From NCBI GenBank assembly GCA_004194705.1, contig SADC01001235.1, positions 5,508 to 69,507 on the forward strand: a stretch of 64,000 bases of DNA. The letters are read 5' to 3'. This stretch comes from Ditylenchus dipsaci (lineage: Eukaryota; Nematoda; Chromadorea; Rhabditida; Anguinidae). The notes below the pieces were generated by a model that saw nothing but the letters and a program-made list of their open reading frames with translations, was not told the DNA's origin and made no database searches. Of the stretch, positions 14,129-23,121 are shown piece after piece (position 1 is the first letter of the stretch; each line of letters begins with the position of its first letter). Made by a program: the position numbers and the translations under genes.

Positions 14129-14644
14129 TTAAGTATTAAAATGCTCATTTTAAGCAGAGGAATTCGACCGATACCCATACTAAGGTCGAATTGACTGGCA
14201 TTGGATTGGATAAAATTGTGATTGGATATACTTTTTTCAAATTCGCGCCTTTTGGTGCCCTTCTGGGACACATATTTGAGTCCGTCCTAACATGCGCTGG
14301 CCTACCCTTGCTTAAGCATTGAATCTAAGTTGAAAATAGTTTAAAAAATATGCAAAAACCGAAGTTTCCAACGCGCAAATTTGAAAAAAGTGTAACCAAT
14401 CACAATTTGTATGCGACTGCAGTTTCAGCGGTCAAATTCTTTTATTTGACCGCTCAACTATTTGTTAGTCAACGTTATTCCAAAGTAATTAAAGCAAAAC
14501 CACTTTTTAGGAAAATCATTATTATCTCAAAGCATTTAAAAATTAAGTCAATTTTCACCGAAGCATTTTCGACGAATTCTATTTTTGGATGAAACCTGAC
14601 TTCGGCCAAAAATAATTTTGACAAAACTGAGTAGAATATAATTT
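14129..14644. other. No gene seen
   Basis: AT-rich sequence; the 80-codon frame at 14,350-14,592 lacks protein-like composition or splice context. Confidence 0.3.
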
Positions 14645-14848
14645 TTAATTCTTAACCTGCAATTGTTTTTTGACGATTAGAGCATTTAAAAGGTTCGCCA
14701 CTGCTGTTTTGTTATTGCACAAAATTGAGAAATGAGTCAGATGCTCTAAATCAGCCAGTACAATTAGTTCTTCGTCGAAAACACCAGATTGAAATATAAT
14801 GTCCAAACACTGAAGCTTCTTAAAATTTTCTACGATCCTATATAACAC
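14645..14848 (-). CDS. Last exon of an F-box/LRR-like protein
   Basis: Reading on the minus strand from a clear acceptor (TTTCAG before 14848), this exon gives 'VLYRIVENFKKLQCLDIIF', 'LIVLADLEHLTHFSILCN' and a stop after 'KKQLQVKN'. Leu-rich 'L..L..L.HLT.F' spacing resembles the C-terminal leucine-rich repeats of F-box proteins and is similar in style to the gene at 23.8-24.6 kb. Upstream exons were not found; the minus-strand sequence just beyond is a degenerate GATTTCGA repeat. It could be an orphan exon or a pseudogene fragment. Confidence 0.45.
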   Translation of the reverse strand: MLYRIVENFKKLQCLDIIFQSGVFDEELIVLADLEHLTHFSILCNNKTAVANLLNALIVKKQLQVKN

Positions 14849-14929
14849 CTGAAATGTTTTTTTGTTATTACGCTGAGCAATAAATAATGGTGATTATAAG
14901 AGTGACGAAAAAGAATTTCACACCCTAAT

Positions 14930-15175
14930 TGCTGAACAGTGTTTTCAAAATCGAAGTCGAAATAGCAGTCGAAGGCTAAATCGAAGAAATTTAAATCAAA
15001 GTCAAAGTCCAAATTGAAATCATTGGTTTGAGATAAAAATCACAGCGATTTCCACCTGAAAACGAGTAAAAAGATTGTTTTTGATCATTTTACTATGGTT
15101 TTCAGGTACAATACAGTCTACATTGCCCTAACTGCAATTTCGATTTCGACTTCGATTATGAAAACACTGTTGCTA
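14930..15175. repeat. Degenerate palindrome rich in TCGATTTCGA
   Basis: 'gctgaacagtgttttcaaaatcgaag' on the left is mirrored by 'ttcgattatgaaaacactgttgc' on the right. Both arms carry short TCGAAGTC/GACTTCGA words. It encodes only Asp/Phe-rich chance frames. Confidence 0.55.
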
Positions 15176-15380
15176 AAAAATCCTTATCTCAGAAATAACC
15201 CACTTAATTCCGGCTATAATGTCCCTTTATTTTTTTTCTCTACTGTCTTTTATCGCTCCTGTGGGTAATTTCGATTAGTAAACACGATTTAGTGTCAGTT
15301 CTATGAGTTTCTCAATAATTGATGTATGAGGACTTCAGACTTGATATGTATGATTTGCGGCACTATTAAGTGTATGAAGT

Positions 15381-15382: not shown

Positions 15383-15821
15383 CAGTCGAGTCCCGCTAAC
15401 GCGGCACCACTGGGACCGGCAAAAAGTGCCGGGTTAGCGGGGGTGCCAGGTTAGCGGGGTTATCATTTTATCGGGCATTAATCATTACAGTCGATCCTCA
15501 ATATAATCACCCTTTATTCAAACAAACATAACATTCAAGAAATGGTTAAACAATCGGGAAAAAAGTGGTAAGTTGGCTTTGGATTTCACTTTTCTTGCGC
15601 TCCTGGTACAAATATTCATCGAAAGCATCACTGTGGATGAGCATGACGGGATCGACACTGTTTTTCTCCACGAATCGGCGGACGAGATTGAAGGCGGTTT
15701 GTGCTTCTTGGCGAGTGACGACCGGTTGCTCCTCTTCCACTTCCATTTGCTGACTGTCACCGGCGTCGTTGGATTCTTCATCCTCAACGGCTGAGACTTC
15801 CGCCACGATTTCTTCCAGAGT

Positions 15822-15830
15822 GAATGCTCC
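15822..15830. other. 9-bp target duplication of the MULE, left copy
   Basis: GAATGCTCC here is identical to 20045-20053. It falls in coding sequence of the Tigger transposase. Confidence 0.93.
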
Positions 15831-16434
15831 GGGCGACGGTCTTTTCGTCCCCGGTCATTTCGTCCCCGGTCATTTTCCCCGGTCATTTCGTCCCCCGGTC
15901 ATTTCGTCCCCCGGTCATTTCGTCCCCTGTCCTTTTCGTCCCCAATTCCGCCAATTTAAAATTTTGAAACAGGTTCAGATCCATGTGGTAGCAGACATTT
16001 TTTTCCTGAATGACAGTCATATATTTGTAATAATCCCGTGGCATCTCCTCTAAATGTAACACTCCAGAATCCGAAATATTGGATTTAATTGAAACTAATT
16101 ACAATTATTGTACTCATCTAGAATTGTGTCCTGAACATGGTTTTATAATGCTAAAACATTAAGAACCCCAGCTCGGGAGTTGTTTCCTATGAGTAGTTTC
16201 CTATCCCGTAGAAAATACACGTGATAGTATGAAGGTGGTAGTACCGAGAAAGTAGTACTTAGTGGTAGTAACAAGGCAGTGACTATGAATCGATACTCAG
16301 GTGTAAGTGCCTGGGTGATGGTACTTGGGTGGTGGTAGATAGTAATTTATATTTAGTGGTACCTAAAGGTGAGTACTTAGTCGACAATAGCTAGATTGTA
16401 TATTAGACTATTTTTCGCAAAGCATATTACCATG

Positions 16435-16750
16435 CTAGCAGCTGGATGCACATGCACCAACTAAACCAAGTGGTCGTCCACTTGGATCGAATTTTTTTAC
16501 GTTATTGGAAAATCCAAAACTTGTTTTTTCGCACTAATTCAATCATTATAAAGATGGTATGACAGTGCTAAAATTACGTTTTGCGAGATTTACGAGAACT
16601 GTGAAAATACCATCAAAACGTAATTTTACTACTGTCAAACCATCTATAGAATGCTCGAATTGGTACAGAAAGTAGGTTTTGGAACCCAAAAACGAAATTT
16701 TTTTTTGATCCAAGTGTACGACTACTTGGTTTTGTTGGTACATCGGGCAT
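16435..16750. repeat. Family P palindromic element
   Basis: The left arm 'caagtggtcgtccacttgg' and right arm 'ccaagtgtacgactacttgg' enclose mirrored 'aagatggt...tgacagtg' / 'ctgtcaaaccatc' segments. It lies inside the MULE but outside its gene, so family P was active after or within the MULE lineage. Confidence 0.75.
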
Positions 16751-17029
16751 CCAGGTATTGAACAGGTATTGAGATTCTCTATTTTATTTCAGGCCAATTA
16801 GGATGCATATCCGCTTGATCAGCTGGTACCCTCTCCAGATTTTGGAGGGTGGGTGGAGGACCGGGTACGATGACCAAAAATCAGTGAGGCAGAGACGGGG
16901 ATGGCCGTCCTATTTTTAGAGTCCATAACCACCATGATTGTAAGCATCATATAAAACGAACTAATTTTTATTCCTAATCAAGTCTTACAGTGCAAACAAC
17001 AATAGCAGACAAAATAAGCAGTTAATACT

Positions 17030-19735
17030 CTACGTTAATTCTCCTCTTCTAATTTCTATGCTCATTTTTTCTCGTAAGTTATCCATTGTCTCCTGACTGA
17101 AATCGATTTCTCTCCCTTGAGTCACACATTCAGCATATTGGCAGACGAAAACACCGCAATCATTTCCATTTGTCTTGGCTTGCATGGGAATGTTCTACAA
17201 AAATAAAAAATATCAATACAAATTTCAACTGAAAATTAACCTTTTTGTTCATAGCCAGCCAATTAGTCGGATCTAAAGCTTCATACCCTCTTTGTACTGC
17301 AATTTCTTTGAGGAAATTTCTAAAATCATTATATGTGCGAAACATTAACAAAGAGAGCATTTAATACTTGATCAGGCTTATTGACCTGCTACCATCTCCA
17401 TGAAAAGAATCATAGTAAACCACTCGGGACTTCACCATTTTGATGATCTGATTTCAATATTAATTAAACAACCCTACAAGCGTCGTAGAAGACATACGAT
17501 AAGAGACCAATGGCCTGGCATATAAATAGGTACAACCACGAGATCATAGAAAAACAGGTCAAGCTCATCCCATATTCCTTGTTCGAGAAGGGCTTCTGAT
17601 CCTTTTTCTTCCAATTGCGTGTAGAACAAAGAATCGAGTGCAAACACCTAAACACAATCTTCAATAGGCGATTTAAAAAAACATTAGAACAAACCTTTGG
17701 CAGATTAAGATCCTCTTGGCTTCTTTTAACTATCAGTTGCATGTAATAGTTGATGAGAACGTCATTAAGCCATTTTCCAGGCAGTAATCGCTCCAGATCT
17801 TCTGAAGTCAATGAAATTCCGAATTTTTGGACAAGTATTTCTCTATCTGTATTCTCGGTTTCGCCTGTAATACAAGCAAAAAAATCTATGTGCAATAAAA
17901 AAAACTTACCATTACAATCAAGGATCACTACTTGAATATCCTGACCCTTAGACTTTTCTGTCTGCTTCTTGTTGACCTTACATACTTGATTGGCTTTCGC
18001 AATAACTAAAAAAGGTGTGTGGAAACAGCTCAAGAAAAAACATATACCGGGACAAGGTCGTGAAAGGCTTGATATCATGCTTCCTAGATTGTTGGCGATC
18101 GAGCCCAAGTATTCCACCTTCTTTGAAAATTCTTCATAGCGCTTTACCACATTCTTGATACGCTCGTTGAGATGTCGATAAGCAATTCCTCGTCTTGGTG
18201 TGTTCTCTCCTCCGAAGTATGCTGCTACACGCTGTCCAGCCAACGCAAATTCAATTTTCAATCCATTTATCAGCTTCCATATAGTGGGATGAGAGGCTGC
18301 CATAGTCCTTATCATCTGCCCGTTAAAGGACTCAATTCCGTTGCTTGTCGTCGGCTCACCAGTTTGGATTAATGAACGAACGCTCCACGTTTTCGGCAGA
18401 TATCTTAATTACAAGTTCCAATCTTGAAGTGACAGAACTAAATTCACCTTGCATTACGGCGTTTCCCTCCACTCAAAAGACGACCAACGTAATTATCTTC
18501 AAAATAGTCCAGCAGGGATTCCATCTCACTAGCAAAAATTGACTCTTCAGATGTTATCCTGGAACATGTAAAAGGTAAAATTAAAAAAGCATAGAAATAA
18601 TATGCCTCAGTGATTCGAAAACCTCTTCTACATCATCCACTGGAACAAAAGCTAAAGCTGGTATCCTGTTCACCTGGTGCCGAAACTCAGGACTAGAGTC
18701 GTAAAGCACCTTGTTCCCTTTCTTAGCCACATTTCTGACAATCGACTTTTGAAGATGAAAGAAACATGCGCGAATTACAATCTTTAGAAAGACGCTCTTT
18801 AATAATTACTGGGTGCCTGAGGACTTATAATAAAACCAGATGTACCTGAAATGCATTGAACTCAGCCTTTTCAAAGTCTACAGCTACGCTTTTTGGGGAT
18901 AAATTTGGACGCAATTCTACGAGACGTTTGAGCACGAATTCATAAGATGATTGCAACCGATGATTGAGCAGGCAGAAAACTACTGGTACATAGGAGTGTG
19001 CAAGCCGTATAAAGAGAATCCAAAGTTGATCGAAAAGAAGAGGCACAACATCAAAAGTTTCGTCACATCCCCATTTGTTAATGTCAACCAACAAGTCCAG
19101 GCAGCGATTGGTTGAGAAAATTAGCACTCTTTCATCGCTGTTCCACCCATCAAATTTCAGGAAGACTTCTTCTCCACATAGCTTGTACTTATCAGGGATC
19201 TATTCGAAAACAATTCTGTACTAAAAATTGCTAGATTAAAAAAAAATCACCACGAGGTCATGAAGTGTTTTCGGGTTAGTTGGTTCCATATTGGCAACGT
19301 GGCGTCTTCGACGAACTGAACGGGCGAGAAGTGAACGACGGATAAGCGGCTTTGCTGGTGATGCTACTCGTTTGATTCCTTTGCGATAATTGATCGGGGA
19401 GCTCCTTTGCTGGTCACTGACTTTTTTTGAATGATACCTTGCAATCGTTTGAGCTCAACCCGATTAGAATCTGGTAGGTGGTTGTGCTCCGTAGTTAGCC
19501 TAGCTTGCTCGTTTTCGGTGACAGCTCTTCCTGATTGGCGAAAATTCATTAAAAACGACCATATCAAAAATCCACCTGGACATTTTGATTCGCTTTGCCC
19601 ATCGGCTCCAGCCTCATAGAATATGCAGCGCCAGTAAGTTTTTGTCTCTCTTGTATCTTTTTTCCAATACATTTGGCCAGTTACATCTTTCAGGAGCTCT
19701 TTCCCTCTGTTGGATGGCAGCAGTTCAAAAATCAT
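17030..19735 (-). CDS. MULE transposase fused to Ulp1/C48 cysteine peptidase
   Basis: Eleven minus-strand exons (19735-19251, 19199-18846, 18796-18606, 18558-18448, 18403-18048, 18005-17910, 17864-17695, 17647-17498, 17447-17368, 17319-17241, 17194-17030) give about 745 residues. Introns are 43-60 bp; the one after exon 3 appears to be GC-AG. N-terminal FLYWCH-like finger ('TKTYWRCIF', 'TTEHNHLPDS'). Transposase core: first Asp in 'CDETFDVVP', second in 'VAVDFEKAEF', then 'ACFFHLQKS' and 'PTTSNGIESFNG'. C-terminal Ulp1 domain: 'GKWLNDVLINYYMQ', catalytic His 'MPGHWSLI', Asp 'VVYYDSFHGDG', and Gln/Cys in 'QAKTNGNDCGVFVCQYAE'. All exon phases agree except for one missing base near 19,380. Known: C48 enzymes cleave SUMO/ubiquitin-like modifiers. 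Inferred: the element may modify or process a sumoylated host or transposase protein. The first Met is the likely start but is not proven. Confidence 0.85.
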
Positions 19736-20044
19736 AATGTCCCTTAAACAAATATAGTAACAAGTCAATATAACGATCGCCTCATTCAGATTCGAAATTA
19801 AGTTTCTCCACAGCCATTTCCGGGGTTATCATTATATGAAGTTTTGACTGTAACCTTATACCGCAGTTAGAAACTTAAATTGATATAGATTACGTACAAG
19901 ACAGCACATTGAATGGCTATTGAAAAAATTTAACTTGGCGGCTTTTGGGGACGAAATGACCGGGGACGAAAAGGCCAGGGGACGAAATGACCGGGGACGA
20001 AATGACCGGGGACGAAATGACCGGGGACGAAATGACCTAGTGCC

Positions 20045-20053
20045 GAATGCTCC
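20045..20053. other. 9-bp target duplication of the MULE, right copy
   Basis: GAATGCTCC, identical to 15822-15830. Two bases away (20056-20060) lies the acceptor of the last Tigger exon. Confidence 0.93.
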
Positions 20054-21943
20054 ATCTGCAATGGAGAGAATAAACAAAGAAATGACAAAGCTGAAACTAA
20101 CCTGTGATCACATCTGCGTCCACGTCCATGTAGTCCATCATCGCAGCTTCTTTATTGATTCCACCGAGCAGCTGCAGATTGCCCCAAGCATTTAGAAGCT
20201 CGTCCATTCCATCCGCTTCATCTGCCACGGTTTCTTCCACCTAAATATTGAATGGTGGCGACGCAAACCAATTAAAAACCTTACCTCTTGATTGATTACA
20301 AACTTTGCGTGCCGGAAGCAGTTGGCAATGGTCTGAGGCTTCACTTCAGTCCAGGCCCGACGAAGATTGTGCAGAGCGCTGAGCAGGTTGATCAGGATGT
20401 CCTTCTTGTCGTCGATCACTTTGATTCTTTCGACGAGCAGGAATCGTCTGTAGTGCACCTTCAAATTCTGAATGATGCCCTGATCGCATGGCTAAAAAGA
20501 GGTGTTCAATGAGCAAACCAAAAAGAAAACACCGACCTGGCTCATTGCTGTCGTGTTTGGCGGGGAGAACTTGACCGTGATGCATTCGAGCTCGAGATTC
20601 TGCGGATGAGCCGAGCAATTGTCCACGTAGAGAAGCACTTTGCGGCCATCCTTCTTCAGCTTCTTGTCCCACGCTTTCAGCCAATCTTTAAAGATAGCTC
20701 CTAAGCAAGCAATAAAGTCATTAGAAACCAAAACAAAACATACAAAACATACCTGTCATCCAAGCTTTGGCATTGGCAGTGTAGTTGAGTGGAACTTTGG
20801 CATTCTTGAAGCAACGCGGTTTCTTCGATCGTCCGATCACCAGCAATGGCAGTTTTTCCGTGCCCGACATATTGGCTCCAACCAGAACTGTGACGCGCTC
20901 TTTGCTCTTCTTTCCGCCGGTGCACTTTTCGCCTAAAAATCACTTGAACAACATAAAACTGGCTAAAAACTCACCCTTGAAGGCCAGAGTCTTGTTTGGA
21001 AGCAGTTGCCAGAAAAGTCCGGTCTCGTCCACGTTGAAGATGTCATCTGGCTCGAACTTGCCCAGCTCCGCTTGAAGAACTAGCTGCTGCCACTTCTGAA
21101 GCGATTCGACGTTGATTGCACCGGCTTCGCCTTGATTTGACTTGAAAAGGATTCCGTGACGCTGTTTGAAGTTGTCCAGCCAGTGCGGACTTGCCTCGAA
21201 TCCGACGATGCTGAGCAGCGCTGCAATTTCCTTGGACTTCTCCTGAACGTGGTGACGTTGTACAAAGAAGAAGAGTAAAAAAAGTGAAAATAAAAGCTCA
21301 CCTTGACCAATTCGCCGCTCACTGGAAGATTCGAGCTTCTCACTTGCTTGATCCAAATGACGAGTGCTTCTTCCATCTTCGCATGCATTCCGGTGTCAGT
21401 CGAGCCCGCTTTGCACTGCTGCCCTCTTCGATAGCCTTCAGGATTGCTGCTTTGTTGTTAAGAATGTCCCAAATCGTGCTCCTCGGAATATTGAACTCCT
21501 TTGCTAACGCCGTCTGGTTGTTATTCTTTACGGCTGCATTGATGATCTTCATCTTCGTCTCCAGGGAAACTGCAGTTTGCTTCCGTTTTGACATCTGAAA
21601 ACAATAAAATGACACGAAAAAGTAAAAATGACATACATGTAGACAAATTAAACGTGACAAGCAGAAAACTAAACTGAATGACGAAAATTCGAAAAATATT
21701 TAGAAAAAATTGATGCAAATTGAAAAATGTTGCAAACTATGGTAGATGCCGGTTTATTGGGGTAATTTTTATTGGACGGGACCAGTCTTTGCGTGCCGGG
21801 TTACTGGGGTGCCGGGTTATCGGGTGCCGGGTTATTGGGCGTAAACTTTGTTGATTTTCTTAGCCAGCCAACCAAATTTTTAATAAGTCCCGGGTTATTG
21901 GGGGTGTCGGGTTATTGGGGTGCCGGGTTAGCGGACTCGACTG

Positions 21944-22499: not shown

Positions 22500-22633
22500 A
22501 GGGATCACAATTTGGTACTATTCGCCTTAAAATTAGAACTATTTAGGACTAAAATAGACCTTAAAAACGCCATCATAGTAGTATGGTCCTATTTTAGGAC
22601 TATGGTCCTAAATAGGACCATACTACTATTAGG

Positions 22634-23121
22634 CAGGGCTTCGAATCAGGGGTGCACCGGAAGTTCCGATTTCCGATTCCGATTTCCGATGTTTTTTGGC
22701 TTCCGATTCCCGATTTCCGAAAAAATGAATCAAATTTCGGAATTTCGGAACAACATAGGCTCTCCTGATTCGAATTAAGAAATGCATTTTTGTTCCGATT
22801 TCCGATTCCGATTTCCGATTTCCGATGTTTTTTGGGTTTTGAATTCCGATTTCCGATTCCGAAATTTTCGGAGTTCCGATTCCGATTTCCGTTCCGATAT
22901 TTTTCGTTTCTTCCGGTGCAACCCTGCTTCGAATGAAAAATTTCAAAAAAAGACATTTGGGGAAAAAAGGACATTTTGACAGTTTTTGAAGTAAAAGGGT
23001 CATTTTATCCAGTGTTTGTTGAAGCGAAAAAAAATTTTTGACTAAATTTCAAAAATGAAAAAAGATTTGGGGTGCGAAAAAAAATGACAAATCTTTTTAA
23101 AAAGGGCGATTCCAAGCCCTG
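22634..23121. mobile_element. hAT-like non-autonomous element (CAGGGCTT ends)
   Basis: It starts CAGGGCTTCGAATGAAAAAT (interrupted) and ends TTCCAAGCCCTG, and is flanked by the perfect 8-bp repeat CTATTAGG (22626-22633 and 23122-23129). Its interior words ('aaatctttttaaaaag', 'ttttatccagtg') match copies at 3.5, 9.7, 24.7 and 26.4 kb. CAGGG ends with an 8-bp duplication fit hAT. Confidence 0.85.
22647..22926. mobile_element. Second hAT-like element nested 13 bp inside the first
   Basis: It begins CAGGGGTGCACCGGAAGTTCC and ends with 'cttccggtgcaaccctg', flanked by the perfect 8-bp repeat CTTCGAAT (22639-22646 and 22927-22934). The body is CCGATTTCCGATTCCGATTT repeats in both orientations, which produce several overlapping chance frames. 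Confidence 0.88.

What the first reader, a model, noticed from the sequence alone, without database searches (positions are those of the whole stretch)
17030..19735. Animal MULE encoding a transposase fused to a complete Ulp1/C48 peptidase
A single 11-exon gene joins a FLYWCH-like finger, the MULE catalytic core and a Ulp1 domain with His, Asp, Gln and Cys all present. Ulp1-like sequences are known in some plant MULEs; a spliced fusion in what looks like an animal MULE is unusual to my knowledge. It suggests the element cleaves SUMO or a related modifier during transposition or to evade silencing. That function is inference.
Basis: partly seen in the sequence, partly recalled or inferred. Interest (0 to 1): 0.9.

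Follow-up and report, generated by a model that had tools for sequence, protein, structure and literature searches.

The report
Jumping gene fused to SUMO protease
A DNA transposon in what is very likely the stem nematode genome carries a gene predicted to make a transposase joined to a SUMO-removing protease, while sister elements carry an OTU-type (ubiquitin-removing) protease domain in the same place, which suggests that this mobile DNA recruits interchangeable modifier-removing enzymes, likely to blunt silencing by its host.

Summary
Window 15831-20044 (minus strand) is a 4,214-bp Mutator-type element with a 9-bp target duplication, inserted in a pogo-type element; a second pogo copy shows the empty site, 260/260 bases. 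Its gene (19735-17030; 12 exons in my model, not 11) holds FLYWCH, MULE and Peptidase_C48 (E 3e-10, 2e-8, 2e-23) with catalytic residues present. The window copy has a one-base frame break in exon 2 (mutation or PacBio error). In this genome, very likely Ditylenchus dipsaci, 28 of 85 MULE clusters have Ulp1 downstream, 0 upstream; 47 have neither Ulp1 nor OTU in the capped lists. Between subfamilies Ulp1 is as constrained as the transposase (dN/dS about 0.15). Ulp1 in animal Mutator elements was already in print (hydra; lancelet disputed). What looks new: kin in the same MULE clade carry OTU instead of Ulp1, in 10 of 85 clusters and never both, after the same transposase end. Closest solved relative: SENP1. 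Most likely the domain removes SUMO at the element and weakens silencing; that step is inferred. New variant of a known kind.

The parts
15831..20044 (-). the whole Mutator-type element, 4,214 bp
   Evidence: between two copies of GAATGCTCC; joined flanks match an empty site at C1288:452547-452806, 260/260 bases
15822..15830 (.). target-site duplication, copy 1 (GAATGCTCC)
20045..20053 (.). target-site duplication, copy 2 (GAATGCTCC)
15837..15943 (+). left terminal region: tandem 15-16 bp repeats GGTCATTTCGTCCCC
   Evidence: direct and inverted repeats; a 27-base double repeat occurs 291 times genome-wide with up to 1 mismatch, reversed control 0
19947..20037 (-). right terminal region: same repeats, inverted
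17030..19735 (-). transposase-protease gene, predicted 12 exons
   Evidence: splice model; splice sites of introns 6-11 are present in C1354, C25, C905 and six deletion derivatives
19478..19717 (-). FLYWCH finger (spans intron 1)
   Evidence: PF04500 E 3.2e-10; coordinates
19364..19370 (-). one-base frame break in exon 2 (frame-0 stop at 19366-19364; MULE frame in use by 19370)
18748..19001 (-). MULE domain as matched by Pfam (spans intron 3)
   Evidence: PF10551 E 1.7e-8; coordinates
19062..19064 (-). MULE catalytic Asp 1
   Evidence: D in 38 of 49 tree rows, 7 gaps
18876..18878 (-). MULE catalytic Asp 2
   Evidence: D in 45 of 49 rows, 2 gaps
18331..18333 (-). MULE catalytic Glu
   Evidence: E in 44 of 49 rows, 3 gaps
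18006..18047 (-). intron 6, phase 1, 11 codons after the IANNLG end of the transposase: the joint to the protease module
17910..18005 (-). exon 7: linker between transposase and protease
17053..17775 (-). Ulp1/Peptidase_C48 domain (exons 8-12)
   Evidence: PF02902 E 2.2e-23; SENP1 best solved relative, E 1.3e-38
17510..17512 (-). Ulp1 catalytic His
17409..17411 (-). Ulp1 catalytic Asp
17180..17182 (-). Ulp1 Gln
17156..17158 (-). Ulp1 catalytic Cys
15383..21943 (-). host of the insertion: pogo-type element (CENP-B_N, HTH_Tnp_Tc5, DDE_1), interrupted in its last coding exon
   Evidence: ends read from the sequence, approximate

Best explanation
The sequence holds a 4,214-bp Mutator (MULE) DNA transposon, flanked by a 9-bp target duplication, whose gene is predicted from its splice sites to run from a FLYWCH finger through the MULE transposase into a SENP1-like Ulp1 protease domain, which likely removes SUMO from host proteins at the element's own DNA and so would ease its silencing. 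Shown: element borders, the three domains, catalytic residues, recurrence of the pair in several families, purifying selection on Ulp1 between subfamilies, and OTU in place of Ulp1 in kin. Predicted: one spliced transcript. Inferred: SUMO as substrate, tethering by the FLYWCH/transposase part, and relief of silencing as the benefit. The OTU alternative suggests that what is selected is removal of a ubiquitin-like mark as such, by whichever enzyme occupies the C-terminal slot.
For: Borders and duplication; empty site 260/260. Domains and catalytic residues. 28 of 85 MULE clusters have a Ulp1 match downstream within 4 kb on the same strand, 0 upstream, 0 on the opposite strand; over all 197 MULE clusters 38 downstream, 0 upstream, 1 opposite. 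dN/dS of Ulp1 0.145 (235 codons, vs C25) and 0.171 (239 codons, vs C905), against 0.119 and 0.144 for MULE; Fisher p 4e-15 and 1e-13 against dN=dS, Ulp1 not different from MULE (p 0.46, 0.47), introns less alike (79%) than exons 7-12 (89%). Nearest solved proteins: SENP1 1.3e-38, SENP2 1.1e-27, SENP5, SENP3, yeast Ulp1; no SENP8 among the 20 hits. A predicted fold of the relative P0003 matches SENP1-SUMO1 (7.9e-19) ahead of NEDP1 (2e-10). OTU follows the MULE core in 10 of 85 clusters, never with Ulp1. P0003 reads MULE tail and Ulp1 as one uninterrupted frame on a 1,396-base contig. SUMO is needed for Argonaute-directed silencing in C. elegans (PMC8131101, PMC8131105: abstracts and outlines seen), and Ulp1-bearing VANC genes of plant VANDAL MULEs go with loss of methylation (PMC13317346, passages seen).
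Against: No enzyme activity, substrate or transcript of this locus was seen. The window copy is frame-broken. 47 of 85 MULE clusters have neither Ulp1 nor OTU in the (capped) lists, and 7 of the 8 PF10551-found loci with a MULE match and about 3.2 kb held show neither domain, the eighth likewise. Recent copies show no constraint: window against C1354 has 2 changed residues and no silent change in Ulp1, and the same in MULE. A SUMO-interaction-like motif in the linker, picked by eye, is not above chance (4 of 8 families, 1.7 expected, P 0.064). A close relative without a protease exists (P0050 ends at IAHNLRLH), so the domain is dispensable for MULEs in general. Six deletion derivatives have the finger out of frame with Ulp1. 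The weakest solved hits include a bacterial deubiquitinase/deneddylase (1.2e-4), so other modifiers are not excluded. Tylenchid nematodes are thought to lack piRNAs (recalled), so the C. elegans piRNA link does not transfer directly.
Confidence: 0.5

Rival explanations
1. The protease acts on the transposase itself: it would remove SUMO or ubiquitin from its own or partner transposase molecules and so keep them stable or active; the host's silencing machinery would not be the target.
For: Predicted fusion in one polypeptide; OTU and Ulp1 alternate, as expected if either conjugate marks the transposase for removal.
Against: No modification of a MULE transposase was tested here; P0050 and the arthropod kin have no protease domain that the calls could see.
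Confidence: 0.25
2. The protease helps host DNA repair at excision sites by removing SUMO or ubiquitin from repair factors, as proposed for Ginger1 in PMC2836005.
For: The proposal and the same OTU-or-Ulp1 alternation in Ginger1 (PMC2836005, passages read).
Against: No evidence here on excision footprints or repair.
Confidence: 0.12
3. A captured host gene fragment carried along without a function (as in Pack-MULEs).
For: MULEs are known to capture genes (recalled; also PMC6446971 abstract start); deletion derivatives carry Ulp1 with no obvious use for it; recent copies show only replacement changes.
Against: Ulp1 dN/dS 0.145-0.171 between subfamilies, as low as the transposase's; catalytic residues mostly kept in divergent families; found behind MULE cores of several families of this genome.
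Confidence: 0.06
4. A self-cleaving polyprotein: Ulp1 cuts itself off the transposase.
For: Viral relatives of Ulp1 process polyproteins (recalled).
Against: No di-glycine in the linker of the window protein, read directly from the sequence; the GG in the MULE tail is not tied to the protease (a GG is present in P0050, which has none).
Confidence: 0.05
5. Ulp1 exons belong to a separate host gene next to a MULE.
For: No transcript of this locus.
Against: Ulp1 lies between the target duplications; 0 of 85 MULE clusters have Ulp1 upstream or on the other strand; deletion copies with the same ends keep Ulp1 at several unrelated sites.
Confidence: 0.01

Closest known systems
Mutator (MuDR-type) elements with Ulp1 in hydra and lancelet (Bao and Jurka, Repbase Reports 2008 and 2009, cited in PMC2836005)
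   Same: Animal Mutator transposon encoding Ulp1 (per PMC2836005, passages read; the Repbase Reports themselves were not seen)
   Different: Different hosts; FLYWCH, splice pattern, domain order and any OTU alternative in those elements were not checked; PMC6446971 (passage read) could not confirm MULE transposases in the lancelet
Ginger1 DNA transposons (PMC2836005)
   Same: C-terminal Ulp1 or OTU in sister families, not both
   Different: Gypsy-integrase-like transposase, not MULE
Tm1 of root-knot nematodes, a Phantom-type Mutator/Foldback family (PMC3169594, passages and outline read)
   Same: Nematode; FLYWCH plus MULE; spliced gene; composite terminal repeats; 9-bp target duplications; deletion derivatives
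   Different: 496-aa transposase; the searched words protease, Ulp, SUMO and ovarian tumor do not occur in the main text held
Arabidopsis VANDAL/Kaonashi KIU genes (PMC13317346, passages read; Hoen 2006 not seen)
   Same: MULE-borne Ulp1; linked to escape from silencing
   Different: Ulp1 is in a VANC-type gene, one of three genes of the element; non-TIR elements; plants; function of Ulp1 called unknown there
MuDR-6_HM of hydra, listed with an ovarian-tumour gene (table in PMC6446971, passage read)
   Same: Animal MULE with OTU
   Different: The paper does not contain the word Ulp1

Membership tests
Mutator/MULE superfamily | MULE DDE transposase domain (PF10551) | tested here: met
   E 1.7e-8, 35.2 bits over cut-off 27.6
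Mutator/MULE superfamily | D, D, E and CxxH residues | tested here: met
   window residues; rows
Mutator/MULE superfamily | 8-11 bp target duplication | tested here: met
   9 bp, with empty site; 8-10 bp at 4 of 5 other Ulp1-type copies and 2 of 2 OTU-type copies examined
Phantom subgroup | FLYWCH finger before MULE | tested here: met
   PF04500 E 3.2e-10; out of frame with MULE in this copy
Phantom subgroup | transposase groups with Phantom in a phylogeny | tested here: inconclusive
Ulp1/SENP (C48) proteases | C48 domain with His, Asp, Gln, Cys | tested here: met
Ulp1/SENP (C48) proteases | cleaves SUMO | not testable with these tools
   only similarity: SENP1 1.3e-38, fold of a relative
Kaonashi/KIU (plant) | Ulp1 in a VANC-type gene apart from the transposase, element without terminal inverted repeats | tested here: not met
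   here in the predicted transposase gene, with inverted terminal repeats
Ginger1 | Gypsy-integrase-like transposase | tested here: not met
   only FLYWCH, MULE and C48 (plus a sub-cut-off ElaD/SseL match over C48) found by Pfam at E 0.001
Autonomous element | intact open transposase gene | tested here: not met
   frame break in exon 2 of the assembled window copy

The most novel reading that the evidence does not exclude
One lineage of animal Mutator transposons has a C-terminal isopeptidase slot, entered through a phase-1 intron right after the transposase, in which a SUMO protease and an OTU deubiquitinase have replaced one another while the ends stayed of one kind: selection demands that the transposase strip a ubiquitin-like mark from its host, and does not care which enzyme does it. 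The transposon is thus a ready-made, DNA-guided eraser of SUMO- or ubiquitin-dependent silencing.
Probability: 0.4. Interest if true: 0.72.

Novelty: new variant of a known kind. Interest (0 to 1): 0.45.

Why it matters
Ulp1 and OTU domains turn up in proteins of unrelated transposons (Ginger1, Mutator elements, Helitrons; PMC2836005, passages). PMC2836005 offers only a proposal for why, and PMC13317346 calls the function of Ulp1 in plant MULEs unknown. A single genome in which close MULE relatives carry one or the other, with purifying selection on Ulp1 and an empty site that suggests recent insertion, makes the question testable by comparison: if both enzymes serve the same end, the shared need is removal of a ubiquitin-like mark. 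It would also give a natural design of a DNA-bound SUMO eraser for studying SUMO-dependent silencing.

Tried and rejected
Ulp1 as a host gene: rejected by the target duplication and empty site. The six copies with FLYWCH next to Ulp1 and no DDE core (C259, C98, C1248, C74, C964, C19) first looked like a finger-protease fusion; read from the rows, the shared junction runs into a stop, so I take them as ordinary internal-deletion derivatives; all six have Val in place of Asp before the catalytic Cys (the C19 row is misread at that place). SUMO-interaction motif in the linker: not above chance. Self-cleavage at di-glycine: no such site in the window linker. One OTU origin: one search rejected it (p 7e-8), but that test wrongly counted two truncated OTU-clade proteins (P0004, P0005) as outsiders; with them included it is not rejected (p 0.43), and the deepest branches are unresolved, so the direction of the swap is open. 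One Ulp1 origin: the Ulp1 tree of 33 rows leaves the families in an unresolved comb, so one or several captures cannot be told. An allelic empty site: the flank outside the pogo element is not among the matches at C1288's site, so it is taken as another copy of that element. Query-anchored rows from tblastn pick up some intron read-through (for example C25 and C19 at the catalytic Cys).
Full report
What is there. On the minus strand of the window, 19735-17030, lies a gene with a FLYWCH finger (PF04500, E 3.2e-10), a MULE transposase domain (PF10551, E 1.7e-8) and a Peptidase_C48/Ulp1 domain (PF02902, E 2.2e-23), in that order. MULE D, D, E and Ulp1 His, Asp, Gln, Cys are all present. The finger (frame up to a stop at 19366-19364) and the rest (frame in use by 19370) are separated by a one-base frame break in exon 2. 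Seven close copies differ from the window at that spot; C25, which has several other one-base gaps, does not. The likely source assembly is PacBio/CANU (PMC6929663, whole text read), so mutation and assembly error cannot be told apart.

It is a transposon, and Ulp1 is inside it. The gene lies in a 4,214-bp element (15831-20044) between two copies of GAATGCTCC, with tandem 15-16 bp repeats at both ends in inverted orientation. It sits in the last coding exon of a pogo-type element (CENP-B_N, HTH_Tnp_Tc5, DDE_1). The joined flanks match C1288:452547-452806 over 260 of 260 bases: an unfilled site in what is taken as a second copy of that pogo element, since its outer left flank is not matched there. 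A 27-base double repeat from the ends occurs 291 times genome-wide with up to one mismatch, against 0 for the reversed control.

Where it is. The window is part of a 226,978,389-base, 1,359-contig genome. The nearest proteins are from Ditylenchus dipsaci. The published D. dipsaci draft has 227,234,012 bp, 1,394 scaffolds and 37.5% GC; the window has 34-47% GC in 2-kb steps. I take the genome to be D. dipsaci; no tool named it.

Other copies. Of 85 clusters matching the MULE piece, 28 have a Ulp1 match within 4 kb downstream on the same strand, 0 upstream, 0 on the other strand; adding PF10551 matches, 38 of 197 downstream, 0 upstream, 1 opposite. These rest on the 150 listed of 188 Ulp1 and 150 listed of 156 MULE matches, and only part of the candidates was scored, so they are lower bounds. 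47 of the 85 have neither Ulp1 nor OTU in these lists. The eight loci found by PF10551 alone (L001-L008, about 3.2 kb each) show neither domain. Of the 50 stretches compared (49 merged loci plus the window), the closest kin are C1354 (all three domains, 98.8% identical), C25 and C905 (MULE and Ulp1 in what was fetched, 85-86%), C158 (86%, a separate deletion) and six copies sharing one internal deletion (element position 713 to 1964, 98-99% identical). In these six the junction, read from the rows, leads to a stop, so finger and Ulp1 are not in one frame. Target duplications of 8-10 bp, all different, were found at 4 of the 5 deletion copies examined (C259, C98, C1248, C74; not C964; C19 was not examined).

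Selection. Between the window and C25 or C905, Ulp1 has dN/dS 0.145 (235 codons) and 0.171 (239 codons), MULE 0.119 (365) and 0.144 (133). Fisher tests against dN=dS give p 4e-15 and 1e-13 for Ulp1; Ulp1 and MULE do not differ (p 0.46, 0.47), and introns are less alike (79%) than exons 7-12 (89%). Among near-identical copies there is no such signal: window against C1354 shows 2 replacement and 0 silent changes in Ulp1, and 2 and 0 in MULE; C25 against C905 shows 6 and 2 in MULE and none in Ulp1, as expected of copies decaying after insertion. Among the 14 stretches of this genome with over 100 MULE residues and Ulp1, the tblastn rows show His in 14 of 14, Cys in 13 of 13 with letters, Asp in 11 of 13 (C1306 and C882 depart) and Gln in 10 of 12 (C1196 and C25 depart); the C25 row is misread there, and one search shows its Cys and Gln.

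What the protease resembles. By sequence the best solved relatives are SENP1 (1.3e-38), SENP2 (1.1e-27), SENP5, SENP3 and yeast Ulp1; SENP8 is not among the 20 hits, while a bacterial deubiquitinase/deneddylase is, at 1.2e-4. The window protein is spliced and was not folded; a relative, P0003, was (mean pLDDT 58.9; residues 1-201 mostly under 50, 205-407 mostly confident). Its best structural matches are SENP1 and SENP2 bound to SUMO (7.9e-19, 2.5e-18), with NEDP1 at 2e-10. So SUMO is the likeliest substrate, by inference.

OTU instead of Ulp1. D. dipsaci P0001 is FLYWCH-MULE-OTU (PF02338 E 4.3e-5, 24.5 bits over cut-off 23.3); two D. destructor proteins have MULE plus OTU (P0008, P0086). Searching the P0001 tail, 10 of 85 MULE clusters have OTU downstream, 0 of them with Ulp1; one of the ten, C1247:451707, probably borrows its neighbour's OTU. 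The OTU-type copies C1247:1035398 and C853 have terminal sequences like the window's and target duplications of 8 and 10 bp; C1283 and C597 also match the window's ends. A MULE tree of 49 rows (rows with under 150 of 380 columns were dropped; 18 of 102 retrieved proteins were used) puts 25 of the 27 protease rows, with two others, in one clade (99/96), with P0050, which has FLYWCH-MULE and no protease tail, as its sister (100/100); the main OTU clade (100/99) and the window's Ulp1 clade (97/98) are both inside. One of the OTU rows, P0002, has only a weak OTU resemblance (35% over 80 residues; no Pfam OTU). The other two Ulp1 rows (C517, C882) lie in an outer lineage. At least one exchange between OTU and Ulp1 is needed if the clade is right; direction and number are open. 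Of the 87 profile hits (7,996 candidates scored, lengths limited), those with Ulp1 or OTU, by their Pfam column or by BLAST with the two tails, all bear Ditylenchus names; in the rest neither was seen.

The joint. Over all 74 retrieved proteins that reach the end of the MULE core, protease-bearing ones included, the median tail beyond it is 3 residues. In 8 of 10 Ulp1-type loci (five families, with near-copies) a phase-1 intron 8-11 codons after IAxNLG leads into V[IVL][AS] and on to Ulp1; in 3 of 9 OTU-type loci, close kin of each other, a phase-1 intron 13 codons after that point leads into the OTU part, with a phase-0 alternative in one (C597). The search fixed the landing motif, not the phase; the 2 and 6 loci without a result were not examined further. 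This fits exon-wise exchange of the C-terminal module; the introns are predicted.

One transcript? No RNA was available here. P0003, on a 1,396-base contig of unnamed source (best match in this genome 72%, so likely another species), reads the stretch after the finger, the MULE tail and Ulp1 as one frame without introns, and lacks most of the catalytic core. A spliced message would look so; its source type is not shown.

Known or new. PMC2836005 (passages read) states that Ulp1 is encoded in Mutator transposons of hydra, lancelet and plants, and that Ginger1 carries OTU or Ulp1, not both. PMC6446971 (passages) lists hydra MuDR-6_HM with an OTU gene, has no Ulp1, and could not confirm MULE transposases reported earlier from the lancelet. 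PMC3169594 (Tm1; passages, outline) describes a nematode Phantom element with FLYWCH and 9-bp duplications and without the searched protease words. PMC13359780 (term search) has none of the searched domain words. PMC13317346 (passages) ties Ulp1-bearing VANC genes to loss of methylation in plants. I saw no paper on Ulp1 or OTU in nematode MULEs in the listings (54 and 58 listed only 20 of 477 and 10 of 21); the library lacks most subscription journals, and Repbase Reports were not seen. So the fusion is known in animals, and the within-clade alternation with OTU in a nematode appears undescribed as far as these searches reach.

Mechanism. I commit to relief of silencing: the FLYWCH/transposase part would hold the protease at the element's ends, and Ulp1 would remove SUMO from silencing factors there. 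For: SENP-type domain, selection, OTU as an alternative, need for SUMO in Argonaute-directed silencing in C. elegans (PMC8131101, PMC8131105; abstracts and outlines seen). Against: no activity data, a linker motif test that failed, and MULEs without a protease. Identity as a MULE with Ulp1: above 0.95. Mechanism as stated: about 0.5.

Noticed in passing
window 16442-16754: A nearly palindromic stretch (arms 16452-16491 and 16704-16743, inner arms 16526-16583 and 16614-16671) downstream of the gene; the self-complementary part is shared by C1354 and the six deletion copies, so it is older than them.
   Followed up: partly
window 15383-21943: Pogo-type element (CENP-B_N, HTH_Tnp_Tc5, DDE_1) that hosts the insertion; a copy at C1288 is identical over the 260 bases compared.
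   Followed up: partly
C259, C98, C1248, C74, C964, C19: Six copies of the window element with one identical 1.25-kb deletion of the transposase core: a young non-autonomous subfamily.
   Followed up: yes
genome-wide, e.g. C70:738013-738863: Short stretches bounded by inverted terminal-repeat motifs of this family, likely small non-autonomous relatives.
   Followed up: no
window 14500-15350: An inverted copy, 94% identical, lies on the same contig outside the window (C1206:95415-96294).
   Followed up: no
window 22600-23000: Low-complexity frames full of N, R, G, S and E (minus strand) or F, R, D, S (plus strand), probably a degenerate repeat.
   Followed up: no
L036 (C517) and L063 (C882): Ulp1 downstream of a clearly different MULE lineage of the same genome; a second gain or an older common origin is possible.
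   Followed up: partly
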